The translations under genes and the position numbers were made by a program. From the NCBI GenBank assembly GCA_027886175.1, contig JAJNNQ010000006.1, positions 7,564,001-7,628,000 on the forward strand: DNA of 64,000 nt, read 5' to 3'. The stretch comes from Phylloscopus collybita (Eukaryota; Chordata; Aves; Passeriformes; Phylloscopidae). Shown piece after piece: positions 1 through 62,700 of this stretch (its first letter is position 1; each line of letters opens with the position of its first letter). The notes under the pieces are model-generated. The model worked only from the letters and a program-made list of their open reading frames with translations, did not search any database and was not told the DNA's origin.

Positions 1-3000
1 ATGATTGATAACAATCACTGTGAATTTTAATAAATAAAAAATACAATCTTCATTCAGATACAATCTCATTAAAGAATTAGTGAAATGCTTTTTAAAATTC
101 TCTGCTAAGTAGGTTTTATCAGTGAGAAAATTATATGGAAGTTTGATTTAGCAGCTATAAATGTCATTAAACAAATATGCATTCTTCAGACTTAATTACA
201 CATTACAATATCAAACAGTTGAAAGCCCAAGAGATAATAAAGTGTAACTGTCACTACCAAGAGTATAATATTATCTTAATAATTTAAAACAGATTGGATA
301 TAAGAAATTACAGTCAACGCATGAGAATTTGTAAGTGGGATAAATCATGTATCCTGCCAAATGGTGAAATTACTTTTCTGAAAACATGACCAATATATTT
401 CTAAGTATTTCTATTCTTAGGATCAGCACCTTTTCTCTGAGTAACAAAATTATCTTTAATTATTCTGAAATATATGAATGACTCACCATTTTTTGTTCAA
501 GCATTGTTTACCTGTTCTTTAAATCTATTACCACTTCTCCAAAAGTCTACATTGGTAGAAGAAAGTCCAATTAAACAAAAATTTCAAGTGAGTCATGATG
601 AAATCTCCAGTGTATATCACTCATAAGGGTCAAATTCAGCTTTAATTCTATTAAGTCTTAAACTTGCATATCCCACCCTTAGCAAACAAACCCTTAGCAT
701 GGACAGCACCACTCAAGTGAGTATAAACAATGTATGTGAATGGGATATATGGTATAATGTTTACCCCAAACTGATCATGTTAGAGAAGAAGCCAGCCTGC
801 ACTGGGATTAAACAGTAACCAATGACAAAGAGACTTTTGAAACAAAGAAGCAAACAGCTGGAAGAGAAGTCTAATGAAAACATGAAAGTACTCAACAGAG
901 GGCAAGGGAGAAACCCTGTGGTGGAAGCAGCAGCAGTCAGATCTTGTTTGACACTAAAGACATCATAACTGCAGCCTGTCTGGGCACACCAGCCTCCCCA
1001 AAGGCTGCCTTGAGCTACTGCACTGCATCCAGGTGGGCGGCTCTGCGGGGTGCAGCACACGGGGACCAGCACCTCCGATATGTGTCTTGCCTCACGGGAC
1101 ACTTGACATCTGGCATGTGCCCTTGCAGGTCGTAGGGAGCAGTAGAGCTACAGGCAAAAGCTCAAACACTCACGTCTTCATCAGAAGCCATGTGTACACC
1201 TTGCACTCCCAGGGAAGGAGGTTGTTGGTAACCTACAAGGCCTTTGAGGAAGAGGATATGGATGCAAATGGGGTGTGTGGGTGAGTGTGTGTGGGTGTGT
1301 TGGTGGGAGAAAATAGTAACATTTTTGAAAGATTAATAAGAATAAGAATTCACAGGAATTTGTCAGTTTTTATTAATATTTGTTTTAACTGATCAGTTGC
1401 AGATATTTATCCTAATCATGTAGTTCATTGATTGCTGATTCATATTAATAAATGTTAATAAATCAATTAACCATTTCAATAATGCTTGTTTTGCTAAGGT
1501 GGTCCACCTTGGACAAATCATGTCATAGAATAGGTTAACATCATGTAACACTAGCTAGTGAAATATCAGTGTTGCTTATGTCTCCAAAAAAATAAAAGGT
1601 CACGCTACCATGCCACACAGGGTATTCTATTTACATGAGAAAAATTTGACAGGGAAAAATGGAAGTTCTCCTTAAAAATAAATATATATTAAATAATCCA
1701 TGCTCATCACCTCAAATTCGATATATTTAATATCAACATAGCTTTCTACAAATGCGTCTATGTAAAATCTGAAGAACAAGAACAAGTTTTGGGCAATTTG
1801 CCAGCCTTCAACGATGAACACATAATTACAGCATCCCATAGTCTACCAGTTGACTTAATTGGCTCTTAATTGACATAGGGTTTGCCAAAAAAAGAGATTT
1901 ATATTCGCAGATCATTAGACCGAGGTTGTTAAACATTGTACTGCATGACTCATTATGGCTTATGCTGTTAGTGTAAGAGAAAGCTAAACAGCAAGGACTG
2001 CTGAGACTGATGTATTCAGGTCATTCAGGAGAACAGAGACATGCCTTGTTGTAACCACAGAATTACACAGGTTCTAGGGAACCACTTTTCTATCTCTGAG
2101 TTACTTCCAGAAATATTCCCAGCCTCAGCTTTTGAGATAGTTTTTTAGAGATTTTGAGTTTCCAAATAAACTTCCCACCTTATATTTTCATCTACCATAC
2201 ACGACTTTAGGAAGGATGGTCACCTTTTCTATGGACATACTGAGAATTTTAACCTAAAAGTCAGTTTTTCAGTAGGACCTGGTACCTAAAGTATTTAGTT
2301 CTTTCTGAAATCCAAGTTTAAATGCACTAACAATGCAGACTAAAATGTGAAATATATTTTCAATGTAAAAAAAAAAAAATCCTTTCACATGAAAACCTTT
2401 CTTGGAATACAATAAAGTGCAATGACTTGGTGAAGATAATTCCCTTAGGAAATCTTTCTGATCTCTTCCAAAAAAGTTAGTGTCCAGAATATAAGACAAA
2501 TATTTTAAAGCTGATGAAATATTTGAAGGTATTGACATGTTAAAAAAGTAGTGTTTTTTTCTTTCATTTCACCCTCCAACTCTCCAAACAGAAGTCTGAG
2601 TTTGTGTGTGTGCACTCAGACATACACTCATATTTGTGAAGAAATGGAGTTGCTCCCCTTTCTCCATTCTTACTGCTGTCTGCTTTTTTTCTGTTCCTAA
2701 TGTCTTTGAGAGTTATGTTCTTTTCCTCATTTCTTGGTGATTACTAGAGAAAACTCCTTTTTTATTATTTTTTATATTTTTTTTTTATTTGAGGGTCTAT
2801 TTTAGCAATATATTTAAATATTGCTCTGCAATAGCATTCCCCCTCCCTCACAAGCAAGCAAAGTGAATTTGTCAAGGGTTGCTTGCAGCTTTGGGGGAAA
2901 GGAGAATCACATACGGCAGCCAAGCTACTGCAGTGTCTCTGAGAAATTGATCTTGTTGTGCTGTGTCAGAATAAGACTTTGATGATAATGACATTTTCAG

Positions 3001-6000
3001 CTGCAGACAAAATCCTTTTTAATTTATTTGGTGGGGAGAGGCTGAAATGATTTTCTATTCCAGGATCTGCTTTACAGCTTGATTCACTTTTTAGGACAAA
3101 CTCTCAGTTCAGGGGCAGGTGGGGAGTTCATCCTGACATGACCCTGAAAGAAAAGGAAGCATTCCAAGGACTTGGAGTTTTTAAATATTTCATTGAATTT
3201 TTTTCCTTAAAGATCACATCCTTGAGTCTCTCACTTGAGGACTAAATTAGGGTGATAACAGAAATGCTGTAGAATAATCTGAGAAATTTTAGGAAACTGT
3301 GAGATACAGATGAGGCAGAAGGGAATAGAATCCATTTAAAACCTGCAAATTATTTTAATATCTACAGTGCCTCTCCTATGTTGGTGAGGTCATAATGTCC
3401 AGTTCCACGCCAGCCTAACTTTAAACTTTGTCTTTTCCCTACTAATATTTTGCATGTTTTTCACTGTTTTCATACAGGCAGTTGTATGCTGTCGTAGGGG
3501 AGGATTTCCAGAATGCCCTGAGGTCCAATCCATCTCCAGATACTTGATCCTGTTTCAAGGCATCAGCTAATTTTTCCCTCATATTAAAAAATGCTTCAGT
3601 TTCTAAAATTACTGGTATACCACCTCAGTTAATTGAGAATAGAAAATTTCCTCAGCGCAATAATTGAAAGAACTAGATGATTTATCTTGCAAAAAAGCTT
3701 CTGTCAGTTTCATGAAAACCTGGGAGTTTTGAGAGGTGAATCTGTTTCTGATTCTCTAGACAGCCATTCCTGTGCAATTATTATTTTCAAGGTTTAAAAG
3801 TGACAGTAAAAAGGTTTTATGTGCTTAAATGTACCTTTTTAAATCTTTTCTTCTGCATTTTCATCAGCATTTCAGGTCTGCACATGCAATTTGCCTATGG
3901 ATGCCTGGTGAGAAATAGTTTAATGACATTTTTTACAGAGAATGCATTTCTAGCATAGCCAGATAAGTCCAAAAAATGCATCTACTTAAGCAGCACGTCA
4001 TCAAGCCCATGTTTGTAGTCTGTGCGGTATCAATACTCTTTTCATTCCTTTTCATTCCTGATGGTCTATTCAGTCCATCCAGAGTTACTTGTGGGGATCA
4101 GGCATGTCAAAACAAACTGCATTGTCTCACACTGTGCTCCCATTTCGGAGGGGACTTGTCCAATGGAAAGTAAATGTTGGATCAAAAGCAATAAAGTACA
4201 TTCTGAATCAACAAACTACTAGTCTATGCACACTAGTTGCTTAGCTATTGTTTAGATATTTTTGCTCATCATTTGAGGAACAAGTCATGCAGATAAATGG
4301 AAATTTTCTCACTGAAGGAATGGCTGTCATCAACTAACCAAATTTTGATCCTTGAAATTTCTCTGTATAAATTGTTTGGATTTTGTTCCTTGTTCAGAGA
4401 TAAGGCTTGCAAGTTTACCCTGTATTTTGAGGTTCTTTAGGATTGGAAAGAAAGTAATGAATGCACAGAGAATGGTTTAATATATTTGTGTAAATAAAAG
4501 TGCCATAAAAATATATTTCAGGTTTAAACTCTATATTTTCATAGAAACAGAATTTTGCTTTACGTCTTTTCATGCATGCATCTGAGCAGACATAGATATG
4601 TGGTTACAAACAGATATAAACATAGATATAAAATATAGATAGAGATATAGATAGATTAATATATCATCTTAAGGAAATAAAGAAAAAACACCACATACAA
4701 AGGATTATCATCTCAGCTGGTTGAAAGCAGTGCCTCTATTTTCTAAGACAGAAATTGGCACCATCCCTAGAAAGAATCATGAGAGAAGCACCTGAGAAAT
4801 TCTGAAAATAAGAATTTCAGTAGAGGGCTAACTCACTGTTAGTGCTTATCTATGCCAATTACACCCAAAAGGTAAAAAAAAGGTAAGTAATTTCATATTC
4901 ATGCCAGAGGGACAAGGCTCATAGTAGGAAATTGCCTTTCAGATAAAGAAATCCCCGAACCCAGCAGCAACAACAATACAGAAACAACCAACCAATCAAC
5001 TAAACACAAAACCAAAAAAAACCCCACCACCCACACACAGCAAAAAAATCCCCCAACTTGGAGCAAGGTGTAAAGTACCCAAAAGTGCTGAAATGCAACA
5101 TCAATGACTGTCAGAGATCATTTTTACTACAAAGATGTTGATAGATTCTCTAACACTAATAAGATTTCTCTGTATATAAGTTTTAGTAACTGCTACTTGA
5201 AAAATATTCAATATACTTGCTCCACTCTGACTTGCGTACTTTAGCTCATAAGGTCACAGCAACCCTCTTATCAGCCAACAGCAGAGCTGCAGCAGTAATA
5301 GGAGATGTCATCTTAGATTAATGCAAGTGAAAATTGCCTGCAATTTTTTATACTTCTGTCTCTTGTGTGCACTTTAAAGTTTCATTTTTATCTCAGAACA
5401 TCCTTGGTCACACCACTCCTGATACTTCAGGAAAATATTTGAATGCACCATTAGAAATGATTACGATCTTCAGTAAAAATTATTTCTCTAGAATATGTGA
5501 GAAATCAAAGGAGAATGCAACCCAGGAATTAGATGTGGATCAATGTAAATATATAGGATTCTGCCTAAATTTACTCTCAAAATACACTTACTTATATTTC
5601 AGTTTTTCTTTTAAACCTAGACATTGACCCCCTTGACAAAGTATCAGCCAAAAATATGGATTTCTCCTAGTCTAACAGAAGAGCAATCAGAACTTTTTTG
5701 ATATCTCTATCATTTATAGAGTAGATAATTTTGAATTATGCATGATGCTGGTATATATATATTTTTTTTTTTACTGCAATATGAATGTCATATCTTTACA
5801 TTGTTAGCAGTTTGTATTGCAGTGTCAAAAAAAAGAAGCAAGCTTCTTTTTACCAACTTTATTAAACTACTTGGACAGCAAGAAGCCTGATATATGGGGT
5901 TTATGTATGGACACATATAAATAGAGGAAAAATTATGGAATTGATTTAGCACAATCTGTTTTGGAAGAAAAAGACATGTAGGAATTAGGAAAGTATAAAA

Positions 6001-29600: not shown

Positions 29601-30866
29601 TGTTTCAATGTTATCTGCTAGGCTAGTTATTATATCAAAGAATATTTGATAATTATTTCCCAATTTGTTAATGAGATCCAAACTCTGTATCATTACATAT
29701 TGAAAATCAATTATTGATATAAAAACACTTCAGGTGAAACTTATGCATTCGCAGTAATAATTCTTGGTTCATACTATGTGCCTTTGTCTTGTCAGGGGCA
29801 GTTAAGTATTGATAACTTCCAGCAGCAGAAAGAAGGCCTAATTTTGCAAACAAACACCAGGCAGCTAGCTTAGTGATCCACTTTTATATGCAAAATTTCT
29901 ACTTTTTTCTCCCTTCCTTAAGATAATATTTTTTTCTCCTTTCTTTAAGCTATTAACAGTTGGAGTTGTAAGCTTTTTCTCCCCAAAACAATTTCAGCTG
30001 CTAACATATTCAGAGGTGTGCAATAAACACTGAATGCATTTGTAGCTTGATTTGAGCTGCATGGCTTCAACCTTCAAGGTTTAAAGGGACAGACACATCA
30101 TTTGCTTATATAATGACATTAAACATACAATGGAAGTACTACATCCCATTCCACAAGCAAAATAACTTATGTAAACTCAGGATCCTATTAGTTATATATA
30201 AGTCATATTTGGTACAAAAGACCACTTAAAAATGTTGTTAAAATCAAAATCATAGAATCCCATTCACAGCTACATTTATATATATAAAAGATGTGATGTA
30301 GTTCCAAATCAGAAAGGGTATTTACTGTTGTTGACAAATATTATTTTCTCTTTAAAGAGATGAAAACTATGGTGTCCCTAGTGTTCAAAACATCTAGATA
30401 AAATTTTAGTCCAAGAGAGAACAATGTACTTGTCACAGGTATAAAAACCTGTATAGACTATGAGGGATTTTCTTCTGTTTTGTGAGGTTTTTAAAATAGA
30501 TTTCCTTGACAGTAGTTAGTTTGTTTAAATATAAAACTTCTAAGACTAAAATATTTTCAGATATTGAGTATCATGTGGAAGTAAAGCAGACAATGTTCAG
30601 GCAAATTGCACTCTGTTTCAAGTGGATGGGCAGGGAGGAAAGATTTTACAAGTGTATGTATATTTCTGCACTCATAAAGCCATTAGTGTCTCCCATTCTC
30701 TTTGCTGCAATTGTACTACAGAATGTGCAGCAAGTGTGGCATGACAAAAGAACCTGAGGAGATAACACTGTTATATCCAGGGTTTCTGTTCAGTGAGAAG
30801 GACTGCATCTGAGCTGCAAAATTGGTAATGGAGAGAAGGCTTTGTGGAATGTAAACAATCAAACAT
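29601..30866. other. AT-rich left flank of the provirus, no gene seen
   Basis: No exon or repeat family is recognised. The last bases AACAT (30862-30866) form the left copy of the proviral target duplication. Confidence 0.5.
30862..30866. repeat. Target-site duplication, left copy (AACAT)
   Basis: AACAT directly precedes the TG that opens the 5' LTR and is repeated directly after the CA that closes the 3' LTR at 37458-37462. Five base pairs is the length known for ERV-L integrases. The match extends two bases leftward (CA) only because the LTR itself ends in CA. Confidence 0.85.
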
Positions 30867-31001
30867 TGTTCTGGGTTGTGGAGCCGGGTTTTGTATATTC
30901 TATTTACATCTGTTTTGAGGCCTGATGACCCACCTTGATAGGCCATTGTTACCTTCCCCAGCCTGTGCGGTGCATTTGCATTTCTATACATCTCATGCCC
31001 T

Positions 31002-31047
31002 GGCGGTGGGGGGTGGGGGGGAGGGGGGGGTGGCCGGGGGTTGGCGG
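31002..31047 (+). repeat. G-rich tract in 5' LTR, possible G-quadruplex
   Basis: Runs of 6, 7, 8 and 5 G separated by single or few bases satisfy the simple G-quadruplex pattern on the plus strand. The third long run has 8 G here and 9 G in the 3' LTR, the only LTR difference I found. The tract lies directly upstream of the 22-bp tandem repeats. Confidence 0.8.
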
Positions 31048-31133
31048 TTCGGCCCGGCTGCAGGAGTGGTTCGGCCCTGCTGCAGGAGTGGTTCGGCCCT
31101 GCTGCAGGAGTGGTTCGGCCCTGCTGCAGGAGC
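31046..31133 (+). repeat. Four 22-bp tandem repeats in 5' LTR
   Basis: Four head-to-tail units begin GGTTCGGCCC and end CTGCAGGAGT. The first differs by a G (CCCGG) and the last ends in AGC. CpG-containing tandem units in a retroviral U3 are commonly enhancer repeats; that role is inferred. The first unit overlaps the end of the G-rich tract by two bases. Confidence 0.9.
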
Positions 31134-31605
31134 GGGGTGCTCGGCGCTTCCTTCGTGGCGGTGTGGCAAGAGCTTTTTTTTTTGTCTCCTGTGCTCGCCA
31201 TCCTGTCTCCCTCCTGGCCGTCCCTGAACCGGTTTCTTCGCAGAATCATCTCTGCTCCAACAGGATCACGTCTGCCACTCCAGAAGTGTTTGGACTGTTT
31301 ACGTTTGGACTGTTATCAACATCCTGAATTACAGGGTCAGATTGAAACTCTGACTTTGTCAGGGTTTTCTTCTAAAATTATTGTTTATTTGTTTATTTGT
31401 TTGTTTGGTTGGGTGGTTTTGTTTCCTATCCCATTTGTATTGTTAATACCTCCTAGTAAAAAACTGTTATTCCTATTCCCAACATCTTTGCCTGAAAGCC
31501 CTTGATTGCAAAATTATAATTCGTCGGGGTGCGAGGGGTTGGTATTCTCCATCCTAGGGGAACCTCAGTTTCCCTGGCAGATACCTGTCTTTCCAAACCA
31601 AGACA

Positions 31606-31695
31606 AATTTTGGCGCCCAAGGGTGGGGCACGAGGGCATTGAGAGAGAGGAATAACAGTTCTTGCGTATTAGATAAAAGCCCACTGGCCAGAATA
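31606..31695 (+). other. Short untranslated leader between 5' LTR and gag
   Basis: Ninety bases run from the LTR end to the first in-frame ATG. They hold a 5-nt spacer, the primer site and a purine-rich GAGAGAGAGG. The open frame runs upstream to a TTG at 31639, but no ATG occurs before 31696, so I set the gag start there. A packaging signal would be expected around here but cannot be identified. Confidence 0.6.
31611..31629 (+). other. Primer-binding site, lysine-tRNA type
   Basis: TGGCGCCCAAGGGTGGGGC begins 5 nt after the LTR. It has the TGGCGCCCAA opening of sites complementary to the 3' end of tRNA-Lys(1,2), as known from other retroviruses. The second half matches that class only with an inserted base and a change (AAGGGTGGGGC rather than AACGTGGGGC). 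ERV-L elements take their name from a leucine-tRNA site, so this type is unexpected for the group. Confidence 0.7.
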
Positions 31696-33456
31696 ATGTG
31701 GTCTAGCTTTCCCTGGTTTGGGTGGCACGTGGTGGTGGCTGTATTTCTGCCATTTGCTACTCCTTATGTTAATATGGGTCCTATGACTAAGGCTACTGTG
31801 GCGGGCATTCAGTTTGTTTTGTGGATTAATAAGGTGAGAAATTCATGGATTTTTAACTTCCTCTGGAAAGCAAGCACATGGATTCATAGCTATCATAGGC
31901 TAACTCTGTGCTTCTGGGGTTACTTTAACAATGGTACCTATTGTAAGGAAATGGCACCGGGGGAAATTTTCTCCCAGCCCTTCACACAGTTTTTTGGGTC
32001 CACCCCACCAGTTTTTGAAGGGTTGAAATCTCTGAGTGCTAATGATATCATACAGTGGCTGGTGTTGCTGGTATGCCTGTTCTGTTTGGCATTCAGAGAT
32101 AAGGGGAAATTGGCCTGGGTAAGCACCTTAATAAGTACCCCAGAGAATAAGAATGCAGCCCAAGAGTCCGCTCCTGCCCCACAGCCTGCCTCAGAGATAA
32201 ACCACCCGGTTTGGGTGGGGGCTCTGATTAAGGAGATGCAAGAAAAGATGAGCCAGATGCTGAGGGAGTACATCTCCCCAGTTAGTGGGAAATCCTTCCC
32301 CTGCCCTGACAAAAGAGAGCCTGATGGTGCAGCAATGAAACCCACAGAGATTACAACTGCTCAGGTCCCAGCTGAACCACAGGGGCAGTCACAGCCAGCG
32401 GCAGTTGCCCCTGTGGAAACAAAGAAATCTAAGGTGAAAACAGCAAACCCAGACAATAAGAAAGGAGGGCCCTCACAACCTGCAGGGGAATCACATGTTC
32501 AGATCATCACCGAGTCCCTGTCGTATGAAAGTCTCCGTAACCTGCAAAAAGATATCGTACGGCGGGGGCGTGAGGCTTACACAGCCTGGCTACTTCGGGT
32601 TTGGGACCTCATGGGTACTGGTGTGCAATTGGACAGTGGTGAGGCAAGGAATTTGGGACCCTTGACCCAGGACTCAGGTATAAATCAGGTATTTGTAAGA
32701 GAGCCAGGACCCCTTTCCCTTTGGGAGCGGCTTTTAATGAGTGTGAGAGAGAGATTTATCCACAAAGAAAGAATGCAGGAGCACCACCATAGAATGCGCT
32801 GGAAAACTCTGGAGGAAGGGATCCAACAGCTGAGGGAAGTGGCGGTGCTGGAGGTACTTTTTGGGAGGAGTGGACAGCATGATAATGACCCTGACAAGGT
32901 TAAATGCACAGGGCAGATGTTGTGGAATCTGGCAAATCTAGGGCCATCTCAGTACACCACCTTTATTGCAACAATTAATGCTGAGGACAATCGAGAGACA
33001 GTGGGGTCTGTTGCCAATAAGCTTAGGAATTATGAAAGTATGATCAATGGCCCGATGCAGGCTCATATCTCTGCCGTGGTTAAAGAACTCAAAGAAGAGA
33101 TAAGGGGGGTGAGGGAGGAGATGAGGACAAACAGTTCCAGTGTGGCACCAGTGCGAGTCACAGGCCCCAGAGTTAGAGCCCAACGACCCCCAGCTCGAGA
33201 GAGAGGGTACACCCCAAGAGCTGACCTGTGGTTTTATCTGCGTGACCATGGGGAAGACATGGGAATGTGGGATGGGAAACCCACTCCTGTCCTGGCAGCA
33301 CGGGTGCGTGAGCTCAAGGAGAGGAACAATCACCAAGGGGGATCTACGAAAATGAAAGTAGCCTCAGCCTCCTATAACCAAGCTGCCAATGCTGTGTTGA
33401 ATCCCCTTGAAGGAACCTCTAGTATGTATGCTCAGGAAGGGGATAACCAGTGCTAG
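31696..33456 (+). CDS. Gag polyprotein, ERV-L type (586 aa)
   Basis: Retroviral structural polyprotein. The ATG at 31696 has A at -3 and is the first in frame. The N-terminal third is unusual: a signal-like hydrophobic segment (residues about 4-21), an NGT sequon (79-81), and a second hydrophobic segment (118-133). There is no Gly2, so myristoylation is not expected. Residues about 150-270 are Pro/Ala/Lys-rich. Residues about 270-460 hold the capsid-like part (LRNLQKDI, WLLRVWD, LSLWERLL, LREVAVLEV). They are followed by a Glu/Lys/Arg helix (VVKELKEEIRGVREEMR). An Arg/Pro-rich stretch (RAQRPPARERG, about 493-504) precedes the conserved ERV-L-like block LWFYLRDHGEDMGMWDGKP (about 511-529). There is no CCHC zinc knuckle. 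The frame ends at TAG 33454-33456 and reopens at once into pol. The ERV-L assignment is confident; subunit borders are inferred. Confidence 0.9.
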   Translation: MWSSFPWFGWHVVVAVFLPFATPYVNMGPMTKATVAGIQFVLWINKVRNSWIFNFLWKASTWIHSYHRLTLCFWGYFNNGTYCKEMAPGEIFSQPFTQFFGSTPPVFEGLKSLSANDIIQWLVLLVCLFCLAFRDKGKLAWVSTLISTPENKNAAQESAPAPQPASEINHPVWVGALIKEMQEKMSQMLREYISPVSGKSFPCPDKREPDGAAMKPTEITTAQVPAEPQGQSQPAAVAPVETKKSKVKTANPDNKKGGPSQPAGESHVQIITESLSYESLRNLQKDIVRRGREAYTAWLLRVWDLMGTGVQLDSGEARNLGPLTQDSGINQVFVREPGPLSLWERLLMSVRERFIHKERMQEHHHRMRWKTLEEGIQQLREVAVLEVLFGRSGQHDNDPDKVKCTGQMLWNLANLGPSQYTTFIATINAEDNRETVGSVANKLRNYESMINGPMQAHISAVVKELKEEIRGVREEMRTNSSSVAPVRVTGPRVRAQRPPARERGYTPRADLWFYLRDHGEDMGMWDGKPTPVLAARVRELKERNNHQGGSTKMKVASASYNQAANAVLNPLEGTSSMYAQEGDNQC

Positions 33457-33474
33457 AGGGGCCCTGCCTCTAGC
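33452..33474 (+). promoter_or_regulatory. Stop-codon hairpin at the gag-pol junction (candidate readthrough signal)
   Basis: GCTAGAGG (33452-33459) and CCTCTAGC (33467-33474) form a perfect 8-bp inverted repeat with loop GGCCCTG. The amber codon TAG that ends gag (33454-33456) lies within the left arm. gag and pol are in the same frame, and no ATG precedes the protease active site in pol, so Pol must be made as a Gag fusion. Stop-codon readthrough is the known strategy of gammaretroviruses, which use a downstream pseudoknot. Here the structure contains the stop itself, and its function is inference. Confidence 0.6.
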
Positions 33475-36400
33475 CAGGTAGAGGAAAGGGATAATCGGAT
33501 CTATTGGACTGTGTGGATCCGATGGCCTGGCACATCTGACCCACAAAAATACACGGCTTTGGTTGACACTGGTGCCCAATGTACCCTGATGCCATCAGGG
33601 TATGTAGGAACAGAACCCATTTCTATTTCTGGGGTGACAGGAGGGTCCCAGCAGCTGACTGTAGTGGAAGCCGAAGTGAGTTTAACTGGGAATGGGTGGC
33701 AGAAACACCCCATTGTGACTGGCCCAGAGGCCCCGTGCATCCTCGGCATAGACTATCTCAGAAATGGATATTTCAAAGACCCAAAAGGATATCGTTGGGC
33801 TTTTGGAGTAGCTGCTGTAGAGACGGAAGAGATCAAACAACTGAATACCTTGCCTGGTCTCTCAGATGACCCTTCTGCTGTGGGACTGCTAAGAGTTGAA
33901 GAACAACAGGTACCAATTGCCACAGCAACAGTGCACCGTCGGCAATACCGCACTGACAGAGACTCTGTGACCCCGATCCATGAGATGATTCGTAAACTGG
34001 AGAGCCAAGGGGTGGTCAGTAAGGCTCATTCACCTTTTAACAGCCCCATCTGGCCTGTGCGTAAGCCCAGTGGGGAATGGAGACTGACTGTAGATTATCG
34101 TGGTTTGAATGAGGTCACGCCACCACTGAGCGCTGCTGTGCCAGACATGTTGGAGTTGCAGTATGAGCTGGAGTCCAAGGCAGCAAAGTGGTACGCGACC
34201 ATTGACATTGCCAATGCCTTCTTCTCCATTCCTGTGGCAGCAGAGTGCAGACCCCAGTTTGCTTTCACCTGGAGGGGTGTGCAGTACACCTGGAATCGGC
34301 TGCCCCAGGGGTGGAAGCACAGTCCCACCATCTGCCATGGACTGATCCAGGATGCACTGGAAAAGGGTGAGGCTCCGGACCATCTACAGTACATAGATGA
34401 CATCATTGTGTGGGGGAACACGGCAATGGAAGTCTTTGAGAAAGGAGAGAAGATCATCCAAATTCTCCTGGAAGCCGGTTTTGCCATCAAGAAGAGCAAA
34501 GTCAAGGGACCTGCCCAAGAGATCCAGTTCCTGGGAGTGAAGTGGCAAGATGGACGGCGTCAGATTCCCACTGAGGTCATCAATAAGATCACTGCCATGT
34601 CCCCACCAACCAACAAGAAGGAAACACAAGCTTTCCTAGGGGCCATTGGCTTTTGGAGGATGCACATCCCTGAGTACAGTCAGATTGTGAGCCCTCTCTA
34701 CCTGGTTACCCGCAAGAAGAACGATTTCCACTGGGGCCCTGAACAGCAACACGCCTTTGCCCAGATCAAGCAGGAGATCGCTCATGCGGTAGCCCTTGGC
34801 CCAGTCAGGACGGGACCAGAGGTAAAGAACGTGCTCTACTCTGCAGCCGGGAGCCATGGTCTGTCCTGGAGCCTGTGGCAGAAGGTGCCAGGTGAGACTC
34901 GAGGCCGGCCACTGGGATTCTGGAGCCGAAGCTACAGAGGGTCTGAAGCCAACTACACTCCCACAGAGAAGGAGATCTTGGCCGCCTACGAAGGAGTTCA
35001 AGCTGCCTCAGAGGTGATTGGCACTGAAGCACAACTCCTCCTGGCACCCCGACTACCGGTGCTGGGGTGGATGTTTAACGGAAAGGTTCCCTCCACCCAC
35101 CATGCCACCGATGCTACATGGAGCAAATGGATCGCCCTCATCACTCAGCGCGCCCGTATTGGTAACCCGAATCGCCCTGGGATTTTGGAAGTAATCACCA
35201 ACTGGCCAGAAGCTGAGAACTTCAGTCTCACTGACGAAGAAGAACAAGTAACCCGGGCTGAAGAAGCTCCACCATACAACCAACTGCCAGCAGAAGAAAC
35301 ACGCTACGCTCTTTTCACTGATGGTTCCTGTCGCATCGTAGGGATGAACCGGAAGTGGAAAGCAGCCGTATGGAGCCCCACAAGACAAGTTGCACACGCC
35401 ACTGAAGGAGAAGGTGGGTCAAGCCAGCTTGCTGAACTCAAAGCTGTTCAATTGGCCCTGGACATTGCTGAAAGAGAGAAGTGGCCGAAGCTCTACCTCT
35501 ACACTGATTCGTGGATGGTGGCTAATGCTCTGTGGGGCTGGCTGGAAAGGTGGAAAAAAGCCAACTGGCAGCGTAGGGGAAAACCAATCTGGGCTGCTGA
35601 TGAGTGGAAGGACATTGCCATCAGGGTAGGGAAACTACCTGTGAAAGTCCGTCATGTGGATGCCCATGTCCCCAAGAGTCGGGCTAATGAGGAGCACCGG
35701 AACAACGAGCAAGTAGATCAAGCTGCGAGGATAAAGGTATCCAAGGTAGACTTGGATTGGCAACACAAGGGAGAGTTGTTCCTAGCTCGGTGGGCCCATG
35801 ATGCTTCAGGTCATCAGGGCAGAGATGCCACCTATAAGTGGGCACGAGACCGAGGGGTGGATCTAACCATGAACAGTATTTCACAGGTTATCCACGACTG
35901 TGAGACGTGTGCTGCCATCAAGCAGGCCAAGCGGGTGAAGCCCCTCTGGTACGGTGGACGGTGGTCCAAGTACAAGTATGGGGAGGCCTGGCAGATTGAT
36001 TACATCACACTGCCCCAAACCCGCCAAGGCAAGCGCTACGTGCTGACCATGGTGGAAGCCACCACTGGGTGGCTGGAGACCTATCCTGTGCCTCATGCCA
36101 CCGCCCGGAACACCATCCTGGGCCTGGAAAAACAAGTCCTGTGGAGACATGGCACCCCTGAGAGAATTGAGTCGGACAACGGGACTCATTTCAAGAACAG
36201 CCTCATAAACACCTGGGCTAAGGAACACGGCATTGAATGGATATATCACATCCCTTATCATGCACCAGCTGCCGGGAAAGTTGAACGGTGCAATGGACTG
36301 CTTAAGACCACCCTGAAAGCACTTGGCGGGGGGACCTTCAGAAATTGGGAAGTGAACTTAGCAAAGGCCACCTGGATGGTCAACACCCGAGGGTCTATTA

Positions 36401-36639
36401 ATCGAGCTGGTCCTGCCCAGTCTACCCCTTTGCACACAGTGGATGGAGACAAAGTCCCTGTGGTACATATGAGAGGTATCTTAGGAAAGGCTGTTTGGGT
36501 AAACCCCACCTTGGGCAAAGGTGAACCCACCCGTGGGATTGTTTTTGCTCAAGGACCTGGTAACACTTGGTGGGTAATGCAGAAAGATGGGAAAACCAGT
36601 TGTGTACCACAGGAAAACCTAATCCTAAGTGAGAACTGA
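33457..36639 (+). CDS. Pro-Pol polyprotein: protease, RT, RNase H, integrase
   Basis: Open frame running on directly from the gag stop. GTG at 33511 is the first common alternative start; residues below count from it. Protease: LVDTGAQ, with Asp19 in the DTG motif, and LGIDYL. Reverse transcriptase: about 150-430, with catalytic Asp232 (TIDIANAF) and YIDD (Asp296/297). RNase H: about 595-745, with Asp604 (FTDGS), Glu642, Asp666 (YTDS) and Asp736. Integrase: zinc-binding His763, His768, Cys797, Cys800, then Asp830, Asp889 and Glu925 with the D-x35-E spacing. A C-terminal domain extends to residue 1042. The YHAPAAGKVER stretch is of ERV-L type. The first ATG (33589) falls after the protease Asp, so separate initiation would lose protease. 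No break or missing catalytic residue is seen. There is no dUTPase domain. Confidence 0.93.
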   Translation, partial: RGPASSQVEERDNRIYWTVWIRWPGTSDPQKYTALVDTGAQCTLMPSGYVGTEPISISGVTGGSQQLTVVEAEVSLTGNGWQKHPIVTGPEAPCILGIDYLRNGYFKDPKGYRWAFGVAAVETEEIKQLNTLPGLSDDPSAVGLLRVEEQQVPIATATVHRRQYRTDRDSVTPIHEMIRKLESQGVVSKAHSPFNSPIWPVRKPSGEWRLTVDYRGLNEVTPPLSAAVPDMLELQYELESKAAKWYATIDIANAFFSIPVAAECRPQFAFTWRGVQYTWNRLPQGWKHSPTICHGLIQDALEKGEAPDHLQYIDDIIVWGNTAMEVFEKGEKIIQILLEAGFAIKKSKVKGPAQEIQFLGVKWQDGRRQIPTEVINKITAMSPPTNKKETQAFLGAIGFWRMHIPEYSQIVSPLYLVTRKKNDFHWGPEQQHAFAQIKQEIAHAVALGPVRTGPEVKNVLYSAAGSHGLSWSLWQKVPGETRGRPLGFWSRSYRGSEANYTPTEKEILAAYEGVQAASEVIGTEAQLLLAPRLPVLGWMFNGKVPSTHHATDATWSKWIALITQRARIGNPNRPGILEVITNWPEAENFSLTDEEEQVTRAEEAPPYNQLPAEETRYALFTDGSCRIVGMNRKWKAAVWSPTRQVAHATEGEGGSSQLAELKAVQLALDIAEREKWPKLYLYTDSWMVANALWGWLERWKKANWQRRGKPIWAADEWKDIAIRVGKLPVKVRHVDAHVPKSRANEEHRNNEQVDQAARIKVSKVDLDWQHKGELFLARWAHDASGHQGRDATYKWARDRGVDLTMNSISQVIHDCETCAAIKQAKRVKPLWYGGRWSKYKYGEAWQIDYITLPQTRQGKRYVLTMVEATTGWLETYPVPHATARNTILGLEKQVLWRHGTPERIESDNGTHFKNSLINTWAKEHGIEWIYHIPYHAPAAGKVERCNGLLKTTLKALGGGTFRNWEVNLAKATWMVNTRGSINRAGPAQSTPLHTVDGDKVPVVHMRGILGKAVWVNPTLGKGEPTRGIVFAQGPGNTWWVMQKDGKTSCVPQENLILSEN

Positions 36640-36717
36640 GTGTGAGGGTTCATTCTGTATAGTGGAGTTTATTAATTTAGGTATGATACAGATGGTAATA
36701 GAATAAGGGGTGGATAA
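36640..36717 (+). other. Pol-LTR spacer with probable polypurine tract
   Basis: The 78-bp segment after the pol stop has no frame for env. A purine-rich AGAATAAGGGGTGGATAA (36700-36717) directly precedes the 3' LTR and is the best candidate for the polypurine tract that primes plus-strand synthesis. It is interrupted by T residues and so is imperfect. Confidence 0.65.
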
Positions 36718-37457
36718 TGTTCTGGGTTGTGGAGCCGGGTTTTGTATATTCTATTTACATCTGTTTTGAGGCCTGATGACCCACCTTGATAGGCCATTGT
36801 TACCTTCCCCAGCCTGTGCGGTGCATTTGCATTTCTATACATCTCATGCCCTGGCGGTGGGGGGTGGGGGGGAGGGGGGGGGTGGCCGGGGGTTGGCGGT
36901 TCGGCCCGGCTGCAGGAGTGGTTCGGCCCTGCTGCAGGAGTGGTTCGGCCCTGCTGCAGGAGTGGTTCGGCCCTGCTGCAGGAGCGGGGTGCTCGGCGCT
37001 TCCTTCGTGGCGGTGTGGCAAGAGCTTTTTTTTTTGTCTCCTGTGCTCGCCATCCTGTCTCCCTCCTGGCCGTCCCTGAACCGGTTTCTTCGCAGAATCA
37101 TCTCTGCTCCAACAGGATCACGTCTGCCACTCCAGAAGTGTTTGGACTGTTTACGTTTGGACTGTTATCAACATCCTGAATTACAGGGTCAGATTGAAAC
37201 TCTGACTTTGTCAGGGTTTTCTTCTAAAATTATTGTTTATTTGTTTATTTGTTTGTTTGGTTGGGTGGTTTTGTTTCCTATCCCATTTGTATTGTTAATA
37301 CCTCCTAGTAAAAAACTGTTATTCCTATTCCCAACATCTTTGCCTGAAAGCCCTTGATTGCAAAATTATAATTCGTCGGGGTGCGAGGGGTTGGTATTCT
37401 CCATCCTAGGGGAACCTCAGTTTCCCTGGCAGATACCTGTCTTTCCAAACCAAGACA
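36718..37457 (+). repeat. 3' LTR (740 bp)
   Basis: Copy of the 5' LTR with the same termini, the same 10-T run and the same four 22-bp units (36898-36985). The only difference I found by eye is one extra G in the G-rich tract (36853-36899). Frames of up to 193 codons inside the LTR appear in both copies and have no recognisable domain; I do not call them genes. Confidence 0.95.
36898..36985 (+). repeat. Four 22-bp tandem repeats in 3' LTR
   Basis: Same array as in the 5' LTR, with the same unit order and the same variant bases in the first and last unit. The array therefore predates the integration and has not changed in copy number since. Confidence 0.9.
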
Positions 37458-37462
37458 AACAT
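37458..37462. repeat. Target-site duplication, right copy (AACAT)
   Basis: Matches the five bases before the 5' LTR. Host sequence continues as AAAGCTAG. The intact pair shows that this locus has not undergone recombination with another element. Confidence 0.85.
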
Positions 37463-59733: not shown

Positions 59734-62700
59734 CTGCAGTAGAACAAGGTTGTATAATTTCATCACCTTACCTTTTCATAGTCTTCCTCAAAGTGAAATA
59801 AATTTTTATGAATCAACATAGCACTACCTTATAAATAGTATAGCTTACATTTCTTGGGTATACCCTATTCCTTATTATTAGTGGTCCAATTCCCAACATG
59901 CTTGTTACAAATATTTTATGATTTTAAATCTGTAATTTTAATTTCTTTTTTCACATCAATATAAGTGCTTTCTTTTCTGGATATTATCCTGGCCTGATAT
60001 TTCTGCAACAAATTACTTAACTACTGTCAGCACAGAAATTCCTGTTATAACAAGTTACCTTCTGGTTTATCTTAGTATGTCTATTCATACTTGTGCTCTC
60101 TCTTCCCTGGTTTAAAGATGCTGAATATATAAATTATATAAATCATTATTTGTTTCTTCTTTGGAGACTACAGATAACTATGTTAGACATTGATCCTTAT
60201 GATGGAAAAGAGTTTTTTTTACTTATCCCATTGATGAAAGCTAGTAACTGTATTCCCTGTTCCTTCTCTGTTTTCTTATCAAATAAAATATTTGTGAAAT
60301 GATTGTTTAATTACTGGAATAACTTAGATGAAAAGACCATCTATTTGAAAACGTAAGTTGTCCACATTTCTTCTGTTTTACAGATTAAGTCATTCTAAAC
60401 GTAACTCTTTCATTAGGCATTTCAGAGTAACTCACTCATTTGGGAGGGCTAGCTCAAATATTTTTTTTTTAATACTGTTAAAGGAAATTAGATAAACGAT
60501 AAGTTATCATCATATGGCAGTTTAACCTGTCATGATAATATTTTAGATATTTTGATTAAAACCAAAAATGAATAAACAAACAAACAGCCAACCAAAACAA
60601 GACTTCTAAACTTCCCACTCTTTGGATTTTGTTTCTGTTATTTTGTGTATTATTGGGGAGTAAAGAAAGACTGGGTTGTGTGAAAAATAAGCAGTGAGTC
60701 TGGCACTGCTATTATGCTCAGTTTCACTGAAATGCCATCTTTTGTCTAAGTAACAGAAGGCTTTATCCTGTTCTAGAAAATCTAGTTTAATTTTTCTAAT
60801 TCTCTTATCTTTTATTATTTTAATAATATTAATTATTTTATTTAAAAGATTGGAAATGAAAATGCCATATAGTCATCTCAGTATTTGAGGAATAATGTTG
60901 TATCAGTGATTGATACTTAGTTCTTGTACATTTGCAGATTTTTTTACATTTGCAGGTTTGCAGATGTTTGCTCCCCAACAGACAGAATTATGGTTTTCAG
61001 AAATCATGTTACAGATGAGCATCTGCTCAGCACAGCATCAGTCAGAAATAGAGGCTTTATTGCTATATTGAAGTGATAAAGCACTAATGAAAAACAGAGA
61101 TATTACTGAAAAAGCAATAAAATAATTTCCAATTTTTAAGTTGTACTAGTCACCATTGTATGTAATAGATAATCCACTCTGGGTGAGGGGAGGGGAACCA
61201 AAATAAACCAGAAAAATGCTTGCACATTTGTATTTCTGAATTAAGAGATCTTTAAATGGTATGTGTAAATGCTAGTTTAAATTTTCCAGAGTGACAGCTA
61301 AGAATGCATTAAGAAACAAGAAAAGTTTATGAAAATCAGATAGTAAATGAATGTTTTTCTTAAGCTGAGAGGAAGCTTAAATTTGAATCAGTGGAAAAAC
61401 TGACTTTGTGCAGAAGGGAGTACCATAGACGCAAGCATTCATATCACCAATATGATCTGTTAAATTTCACAACACAATAGGTATTAAAAAGAGAGAAAAA
61501 GTAAAAGAAGCAAGTACATAGATAGATGGAAGTCATTTGACTTAATTACTATTGGAAAGATTTCAGAAGCTATGAACAGGAATGAGGAGAGGAGAGGAGA
61601 GGAGAGGAGAGGAGAGGAGAGGAGAGGAGAGGAGAGGAGAGGAGAGGAGAGGAGAGGAGAGGAGAGGAGAGGAGAGGAGAGGAGAGGAGAGGAGAGGAGA
61701 GGAGAGGAGAGGAGAGGAGAGGAGAGGAGAGGAGAGGAGGACTAAACACTGAACTTTTTAAAAATGTCTTCTAGGAAAGGTGACATTGCAGAAACAGATG
61801 GATCAGCTCTGCCTAGATTTACTTAAGTGTGTGCAGATAATGTCTTATGTTGATGTAAATAACTTCATATAGTGATATAAATATTGTTAATCAATTAGAG
61901 CATGAACTTTCAGAAAGATATTGAAGTTGAAGAAGGAAGGATAAATAGTACTTGGCTTATCTTGAGTACATCTCAAAATTAAATTTCTCTTCTTGATAAA
62001 TATAGAAAAGAGACGGTCAAAATTAGTGGTTGCTGATTACAGGATACTATGTCATTCGGAATGTAGCAAGGACTAGATCTGTTCTCATGAATGTCAAAAG
62101 GATTTTGCAATTAACTTCACAGCATGATAAGGCTCTGGGTCTTTAAAAATAGAGTTGTGGTATAACTCACAAAGTTCTCACTAGTTTTGATTTTTTTTTT
62201 CTATCACATTTTTATAAGAAAGACACAGGCTAACATCTCAGCTATATATTTTTTTTGAAAGCTAGGTATTTTAAAATATTTCATTCTCTACTTTTTTTTT
62301 TTTCCCAACACCAATTATTCTGCAATCTGTAGTGTGCTATTTTTCTTACTTTCATTTTTCTGACAGTTTCAGTTATAGTTCTAAAGAAACACAGCAAGAC
62401 TGAGATTGGAAAAAAATCTGTTATTTTATTGGATAACTGTTTTATTCAAGCAGAAAAATACAAAAGGCAAAAGTGTGTCTTAAATGTCAGCTGGAAATAA
62501 AGCGTATTTGTTCTGCATGTATATCTGCCTTGAGAGAAGCTGCATAAAAGGAGAAAACTTCAGGAAAAATATCACATTTGATTAAAGACATTGTGCTACC
62601 TTGAATTTATGTAAATTGATAATCAAATCTCTATTAATACAATATGATACATTATTGATATATACAGATTGAACTTTTGATATTACATTAATGTTTCAGT

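What the first reader, a model, noticed from the sequence alone, without database searches (positions are those of the whole stretch)
30867..37457. Nearly pristine, probably very recently inserted ERV-L provirus
The two LTRs (739 and 740 bp) appear identical by eye except for one G in a homopolymer. gag and pol are both open, all protease, RT, RNase H and integrase catalytic residues looked for are present, and the 5-bp duplication AACAT is intact. LTRs are identical at integration, so near-zero divergence implies a very young, possibly polymorphic insertion of a potentially mobile family.
Basis: partly seen in the sequence, partly recalled or inferred. Interest (0 to 1): 0.8.

Follow-up and report, generated by a model that had tools for sequence, protein, structure and literature searches.

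The report
Very young songbird-type ERV-L provirus
This is a genuinely fresh copy of a virus-derived jumping element in a bird genome, but it is one of more than a hundred near-identical copies in the same genome and belongs to a kind already described in songbirds.

Summary
The element lies exactly at 30867-37457; its LTRs (739 and 740 bp) differ only by one G in a G-run. AACAT flanks it, and gag and pol are open. [quoted passage not shown]

It is not exceptional in its genome. Of 95 loci found in both the RT and gag lists, 81 have both frames open. Of 57 sampled proviruses with complete LTR pairs, 26 have zero LTR substitutions and 55 have identical 5-bp duplications. At 2.0e-9 per site per year (PMC12047795) the window copy is younger than about 1 My.

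So it is one product of a large, very recent and perhaps continuing ERV-L burst, like TguERVL2 in estrildid finches (PMC6523648). Whether this insertion is polymorphic could not be tested. New member of a known kind; modest interest.

The parts
30862..30866 (.). left copy of the 5-bp target-site duplication AACAT
   Evidence: sequence
30867..31605 (+). 5' LTR, 739 bp, TG...CA
31046..31132 (+). 22-bp tandem repeat in the 5' LTR, 4.0 copies; repeat number varies among copies and between the two LTRs of one provirus
31611..31629 (+). primer binding site candidate, 5 nt after the LTR; Lys-type by recall, primer tRNA not tested; 41 of 57 sampled copies carry this variant
31696..33456 (+). gag, 586 aa from the first ATG of an open frame that starts at 31558; ends with amber TAG at 33454-33456; possible capsid C-terminal part at about residues 354-452 (weak)
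33457..36639 (+). pro-pol in the same frame as gag, 1060 aa: protease (DTG at 33565), RT (YIDD at 34390), RNase H (FTDGS at 35314), integrase (zinc finger from 35797; catalytic core from 35998)
36640..36717 (+). 78 bp from the pol stop to the 3' LTR, with a purine-rich stretch at its end; no room for env
36718..37457 (+). 3' LTR, 740 bp, with the same 22-bp repeat at 36898-36984
37458..37462 (.). right copy of the duplication AACAT

Best explanation
[quoted passage not shown] Inferred from the family: LTR-driven RNA is made, Gag is translated, and occasional reading through the amber stop gives Gag-Pro-Pol. RNA is packaged and reverse-transcribed inside the cell, and integrase inserts the DNA with a 5-bp duplication. 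Shown here: the anatomy, the 5-bp duplications, the amber stop in the 49 other copies looked at, the near-identity of many copies and the near-zero LTR divergence. Inferred: read-through, intracellular life cycle and present mobility.
For: LTRs with no substitutions. Both genes open. Catalytic motifs present. 150 of 150 scored RT matches and 150 of 150 scored gag matches, window included, tie at one score. 26 of 57 LTR pairs have 0 substitutions and 35 of 57 at most 1. 55 of 57 have identical 5-bp duplications, and only one pair among 60 left flanks is shared, so nearly all sampled copies are separate insertions. TAG at the gag-pol junction in 29 of 29 junction loci held (of 39 other matches) and in 20 of 20 copies drawn from the sampled 60. 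Foamy RTs score best among solved structures, 134 bits against 103 for the best MLV-type chain (virus names partly by recall).
Against: No expression, particle or transposition data. Read-through is unproven: the junction RNA folds only slightly better than shuffles (z = -1.68). The junction differs by 0-2 of 250 bases in the 20 copies, so the conserved TAG is weak evidence of selection. Two of 57 copies lack a matching duplication. 23 of 150 RT matches sit in a pol frame outside 1060-1062 aa, 22 of them clearly shortened. No other individual could be examined.
Confidence: 0.92

Rival explanations
1. An older insertion whose LTRs look identical because of gene conversion or an assembly that copied one LTR onto the other.
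For: Either process would give identical LTRs; the only difference lies in a homopolymer, where base calls are unreliable.
Against: Near-zero LTR divergence is common (26 of 57), and 18 of 57 pairs, 11 of them with zero substitutions, differ in length by 20 bp or more, so the assembly does keep LTRs apart. The gag and RT pieces tested are also undamaged and tie with many other copies.
Confidence: 0.05
2. The many near-identical copies come from segmental duplication of one provirus, not from retrotransposition.
For: One inverted duplicate pair was found on contig C20, with the same flanks and duplication. Some RT copies stand in tandem, 5.73-5.85 kb apart.
Against: 55 of 57 sampled copies have an identical 5-bp duplication; only one pair of 60 left flanks matches; the window's left flank is unique in the assembly.
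Confidence: 0.02
3. A class II (ERV-K, betaretrovirus-like) element, as its primer site looks Lys-type.
For: PBS begins TGGCGCCCAA, which by recall fits tRNA-Lys rather than tRNA-Leu.
Against: The duplication is 5 bp (5 bp = ERV3/L, 6 bp = ERV2/K in PMC6523648); RT is nearest to foamy viruses; pro is in the pol frame.
Confidence: 0.02

Closest known systems
TguERVL2_I_Ucy / TguERVL2 / TguERVL1 (ERVL of estrildid finches; PMC6523648: abstract, section 3.4 and search passages seen)
   Same: ERVL superfamily; about 6.4 kb; two long ORFs in one reading frame; AP, RT, RH and INT domains; very recent amplification judged likely still active; vertical inheritance in songbirds
   Different: Sequence identity could not be measured here because no repeat library is held. 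They report a broken envelope-like match inside gag; I found no Pfam match with E <= 0.01 in this gag
MuERV-L (PMC5930517, passages only)
   Same: env-less, gag and pol open in many copies, 5-nt target duplication, intracellular life cycle proposed
   Different: mammalian; tRNA-Leu primer; by recall it carries a dUTPase, not found here in the pol pieces
XtERV-S of Xenopus (PMC8278194, passages only)
   Same: class III; gag and pro-pol in one frame with a stop between; identical LTRs in the intact copy
   Different: TGA stop, tRNA-Ser primer, has env
Pol proteins of other birds (120 of 1014 hits listed)
   Same: 86-94% with Hirundo, Corvus, Manacus and Oenanthe entries in the leading rows (some Hirundo entries further down fall to 73%); 83-84% with the best parrot, crane, duck and pigeon entries
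   Different: gag is less alike: 49-81% with oscine entries covering half or more of it, 34-42% with Manacus, Pithys and Pitangus; no non-passerine name among the listed gag hits (bird orders by recall)

Membership tests
class III / ERV-L (ERV3) superfamily | 5-bp target-site duplication (PMC6523648) | tested here: met
   AACAT at the window copy; 55 of 57 other sampled copies
class III / ERV-L (ERV3) superfamily | RT closest to spumaviruses | tested here: met
   best solved-structure matches are foamy-virus pol chains (virus identity by recall), 134 bits against 103 for the best MLV-type chain; no tree with ERV-L references was possible
class III / ERV-L (ERV3) superfamily | pro in the same frame as pol (PMC8278194) | tested here: met
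   one open frame 33457-36639 with DTG near its start
class III / ERV-L (ERV3) superfamily | no env (typical of ERV-L; XtERV-S is an exception) | tested here: met
   78 bp between pol stop and 3' LTR
mammalian ERV-L subgroup (MuERV-L) | tRNA-Leu primer site | tested here: inconclusive
   PBS begins TGGCGCCCAA and looks Lys-type by recall; the tRNA search did not complete
mammalian ERV-L subgroup (MuERV-L) | dUTPase in pol (recalled) | tested here: not met
   no dUTPase match with E <= 0.01 in three pol pieces; so not filed in this subgroup
TguERVL2-type songbird ERVL | about 6.4 kb, two long ORFs in one frame, AP-RT-RH-INT | tested here: met
   6591 bp
TguERVL2-type songbird ERVL | sequence similarity to the published TguERVL2/1 consensus | not testable with these tools
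   no repeat library held

The most novel reading that the evidence does not exclude
A songbird-type ERV-L lineage in mid-burst: at least 150 and probably hundreds of copies, many with both genes open and zero LTR divergence, still transposing and segregating in the population, concentrated on a few short contigs that may be the W chromosome, and with a gag N-terminal half that diverges among birds far faster than pol.
Probability: 0.5. Interest if true: 0.45.

Novelty: new member of a known kind. Interest (0 to 1): 0.27.

Why it matters
A bird assembly with this many near-identical coding ERV-L copies is a good setting for measuring present-day retrotransposition, insertion polymorphism and the W-refugium idea. 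This one locus adds little by itself, since it is typical of its family.

Tried and rejected

Limits: the genome search scores only the best 40 (DNA) or 150 (protein) candidates. The RT list ends at contig C36 and the gag list at C52, so both are cut by the cap and counts are lower bounds. All rows of the RT list, the window's own included, print 99% identity at one score; I read a tie with the window's own row as protein identity over that piece. The 60 copies sampled for LTR dating were drawn at random from the other 149 tied RT copies, so they are biased to young ones; 3 of 60 were dropped for incomplete LTRs. The repeat count counts one 8-base motif, so 0 can mean a changed unit. The bird assignment rests on PF02422; its 14 control genomes (0 hits) are unnamed to me.

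Full report
What is there. The element lies at 30867-37457 on the plus strand. LTRs: 30867-31605 (739 bp) and 36718-37457 (740 bp); the alignment shows no substitution and one gap, a G in a G-run. Both start TG and end CA and are flanked by AACAT. Between them are a primer binding site candidate at 31611-31629, a gag frame open from 31558 to an amber TAG at 33454-33456 (first ATG 31696), and a pol frame 33457-36639 in the same frame. Only 78 bp separate pol from the 3' LTR, so there is no env. Protease, RT, RNase H and integrase motifs are present. GC content rises from 0.31-0.36 in most of the window to 0.54 inside the element.

Where it is. The window is C6:7564001-7628000 of a 1,247,226,758-base assembly in 517 contigs. 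At least 150 matches to the keratin family PF02422 (150 scored of 228 candidates; 0 of 14 control genomes) fit a bird. The named gag relatives listed are all passerines, by recall of the bird orders.

What kind. RT scores best against foamy-virus RTs among solved structures (134 bits, against 103 for the best MLV-type RT). The duplication is 5 bp, the class used for ERV3/L in PMC6523648. Gag and pro-pol in one frame with a stop between is reported for class III XtERV-S (PMC8278194, passages seen). The best-matching description is TguERVL2_I_Ucy: about 6.4 kb, two long ORFs in one frame, AP-RT-RH-INT, low divergence, judged likely still active (PMC6523648, section 3.4 and passages seen). The primer site looks Lys-type by recall, unlike the tRNA-Leu of MuERV-L (PMC5930517, passages); this could not be tested. 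Recent LTR bursts in songbirds are not always ERV-L: in the blackcap the recent expansion is ERVK (PMC10542752, passages).

How common. A 197-aa RT piece gave 150 of 150 scored matches at one score, window included; 127 of 150 sit in an open frame of 1060-1062 aa, one in 1059 and 22 in shorter ones. A 200-aa gag piece likewise gave 150 of 150 ties. 95 loci are in both lists; in 81 of 95 the gag (at least 586 aa) and pol (at least 1059 aa) frames are both open. A 501-bp stretch over the gag-pol junction gave 39 other matches of 40 scored, all at 900 bits against the window's 904. The lists are capped, so these are lower bounds; first-look candidates that were not scored number 1566-4684 in these searches and were not examined. 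LTRs vary more: the other listed LTRs (38 of 40) are 98-99% alike. Among the 114 LTRs of 57 sampled proviruses the nearest to the window's differs by 1 substitution and 4 gaps over 693 aligned bases, and the median is 17 substitutions.

How old. From 149 other tied RT copies I drew 60 at random; 57 had complete LTR pairs. Substitutions between LTRs: 0 in 26, 1 in 9, 2-7 in 18, 9-15 in 4. The median divergence of 0.00136 gives 0.34 My at 2.0e-9 per site per year, the zebra finch pedigree rate (PMC12047795, passages seen); the largest gives 5.3 My. There are more zeros (26) than a single age would give (6.7), so a fresh burst sits on older copies. For the window copy, 0 of 739 gives an upper 95% bound of about 1.0 My. 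The sample is biased to young copies, and the host's own rate is unknown.

Independent insertions. 55 of 57 have identical 5-bp duplications; 2 do not. Of 60 left flanks only one pair matches, an inverted duplicate on C20. So nearly all sampled copies are separate insertions.

LTR repeat. Each window LTR holds a 22-bp tandem repeat, 4.0 copies. 18 of 57 pairs differ in length by 20 bp or more, 17 of them by whole 22-bp units, including 11 of the 26 pairs with zero substitutions. This argues against assembly copying of LTRs and suggests slippage during reverse transcription (inference).

Gag-Pol expression. The stop is TAG in 29 of 29 junction loci held (of 39 other matches), which are identical to the window over 130 nt, and in 20 of 20 copies drawn at random from the sampled 60. 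Suppression of the stop is the likely route, by analogy with XtERV-S and gammaretroviruses (PMC8278194); the folding test gave no support.

Gag. Among hits covering half or more of gag, oscine entries run at 49-81% and Manacus, Pithys and Pitangus at 34-42%, while RT is 91.5% alike in a Manacus entry and 94.7% in a Corvus entry. In those three suboscine entries residues 1-260 are 21-26% alike against 49-59% for 261-490. Against a strong contrast: gag and pol hits need not come from the same element. In ten single proteins holding both parts the gap is smaller: gag 66-79% and RT 73-87% in nine, one of which (Lonchura, P0153) has gag slightly above RT, while the tenth (Turdus, P0184) joins a 75% gag to an unlike RT, 30%.

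Verdict. It is a typical member of a large recent ERV-L burst in a bird, a kind already in print (PMC6523648).

Noticed in passing
contigs C30, C20, C11, C32, C17 of G000: RT copies of this family are dense on these short contigs (0.75-2.1 per Mb) against 0-0.32 per Mb on the 19 other contigs whose length was known.
   Followed up: partly
C20: RT matches at 1351555 (-) and 1447964 (+): Two proviruses in opposite orientation about 96 kb apart share the same duplication, LTR repeat pattern and 109 of 109 compared flank bases on each side, so they lie in an inverted duplication, perhaps a palindrome.
   Followed up: partly
C20:3000429/3006276, C30:5349318/5355163, C11:4683457/4689190: Same-strand RT copies spaced 5.73-5.85 kb apart, as expected for tandem proviruses sharing a central LTR through unequal recombination.
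   Followed up: no
LTR 22-bp repeat, 31046-31132 and 36898-36984: By a motif count, repeat number varies from 0 to 8 among 116 LTRs (58 proviruses, window included) and differs between the two LTRs in 19 of 58.
   Followed up: yes
31611-31629 and sampled copies: Three primer-site variants: 41, 15 and 1 of 57 copies; the window has the commonest, which departs from the Lys-type form (recalled) after its first ten bases.
   Followed up: partly
gag, 31696-33453: Gag diverges faster than pol among passerines, most of all residues 1-260 in the suboscine entries; no non-passerine name is among the listed gag hits although pol is 83-84% alike in the best non-passerine entries.
   Followed up: partly
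61584-61739: A perfect 31-copy GAGGA pentanucleotide array.
   Followed up: no
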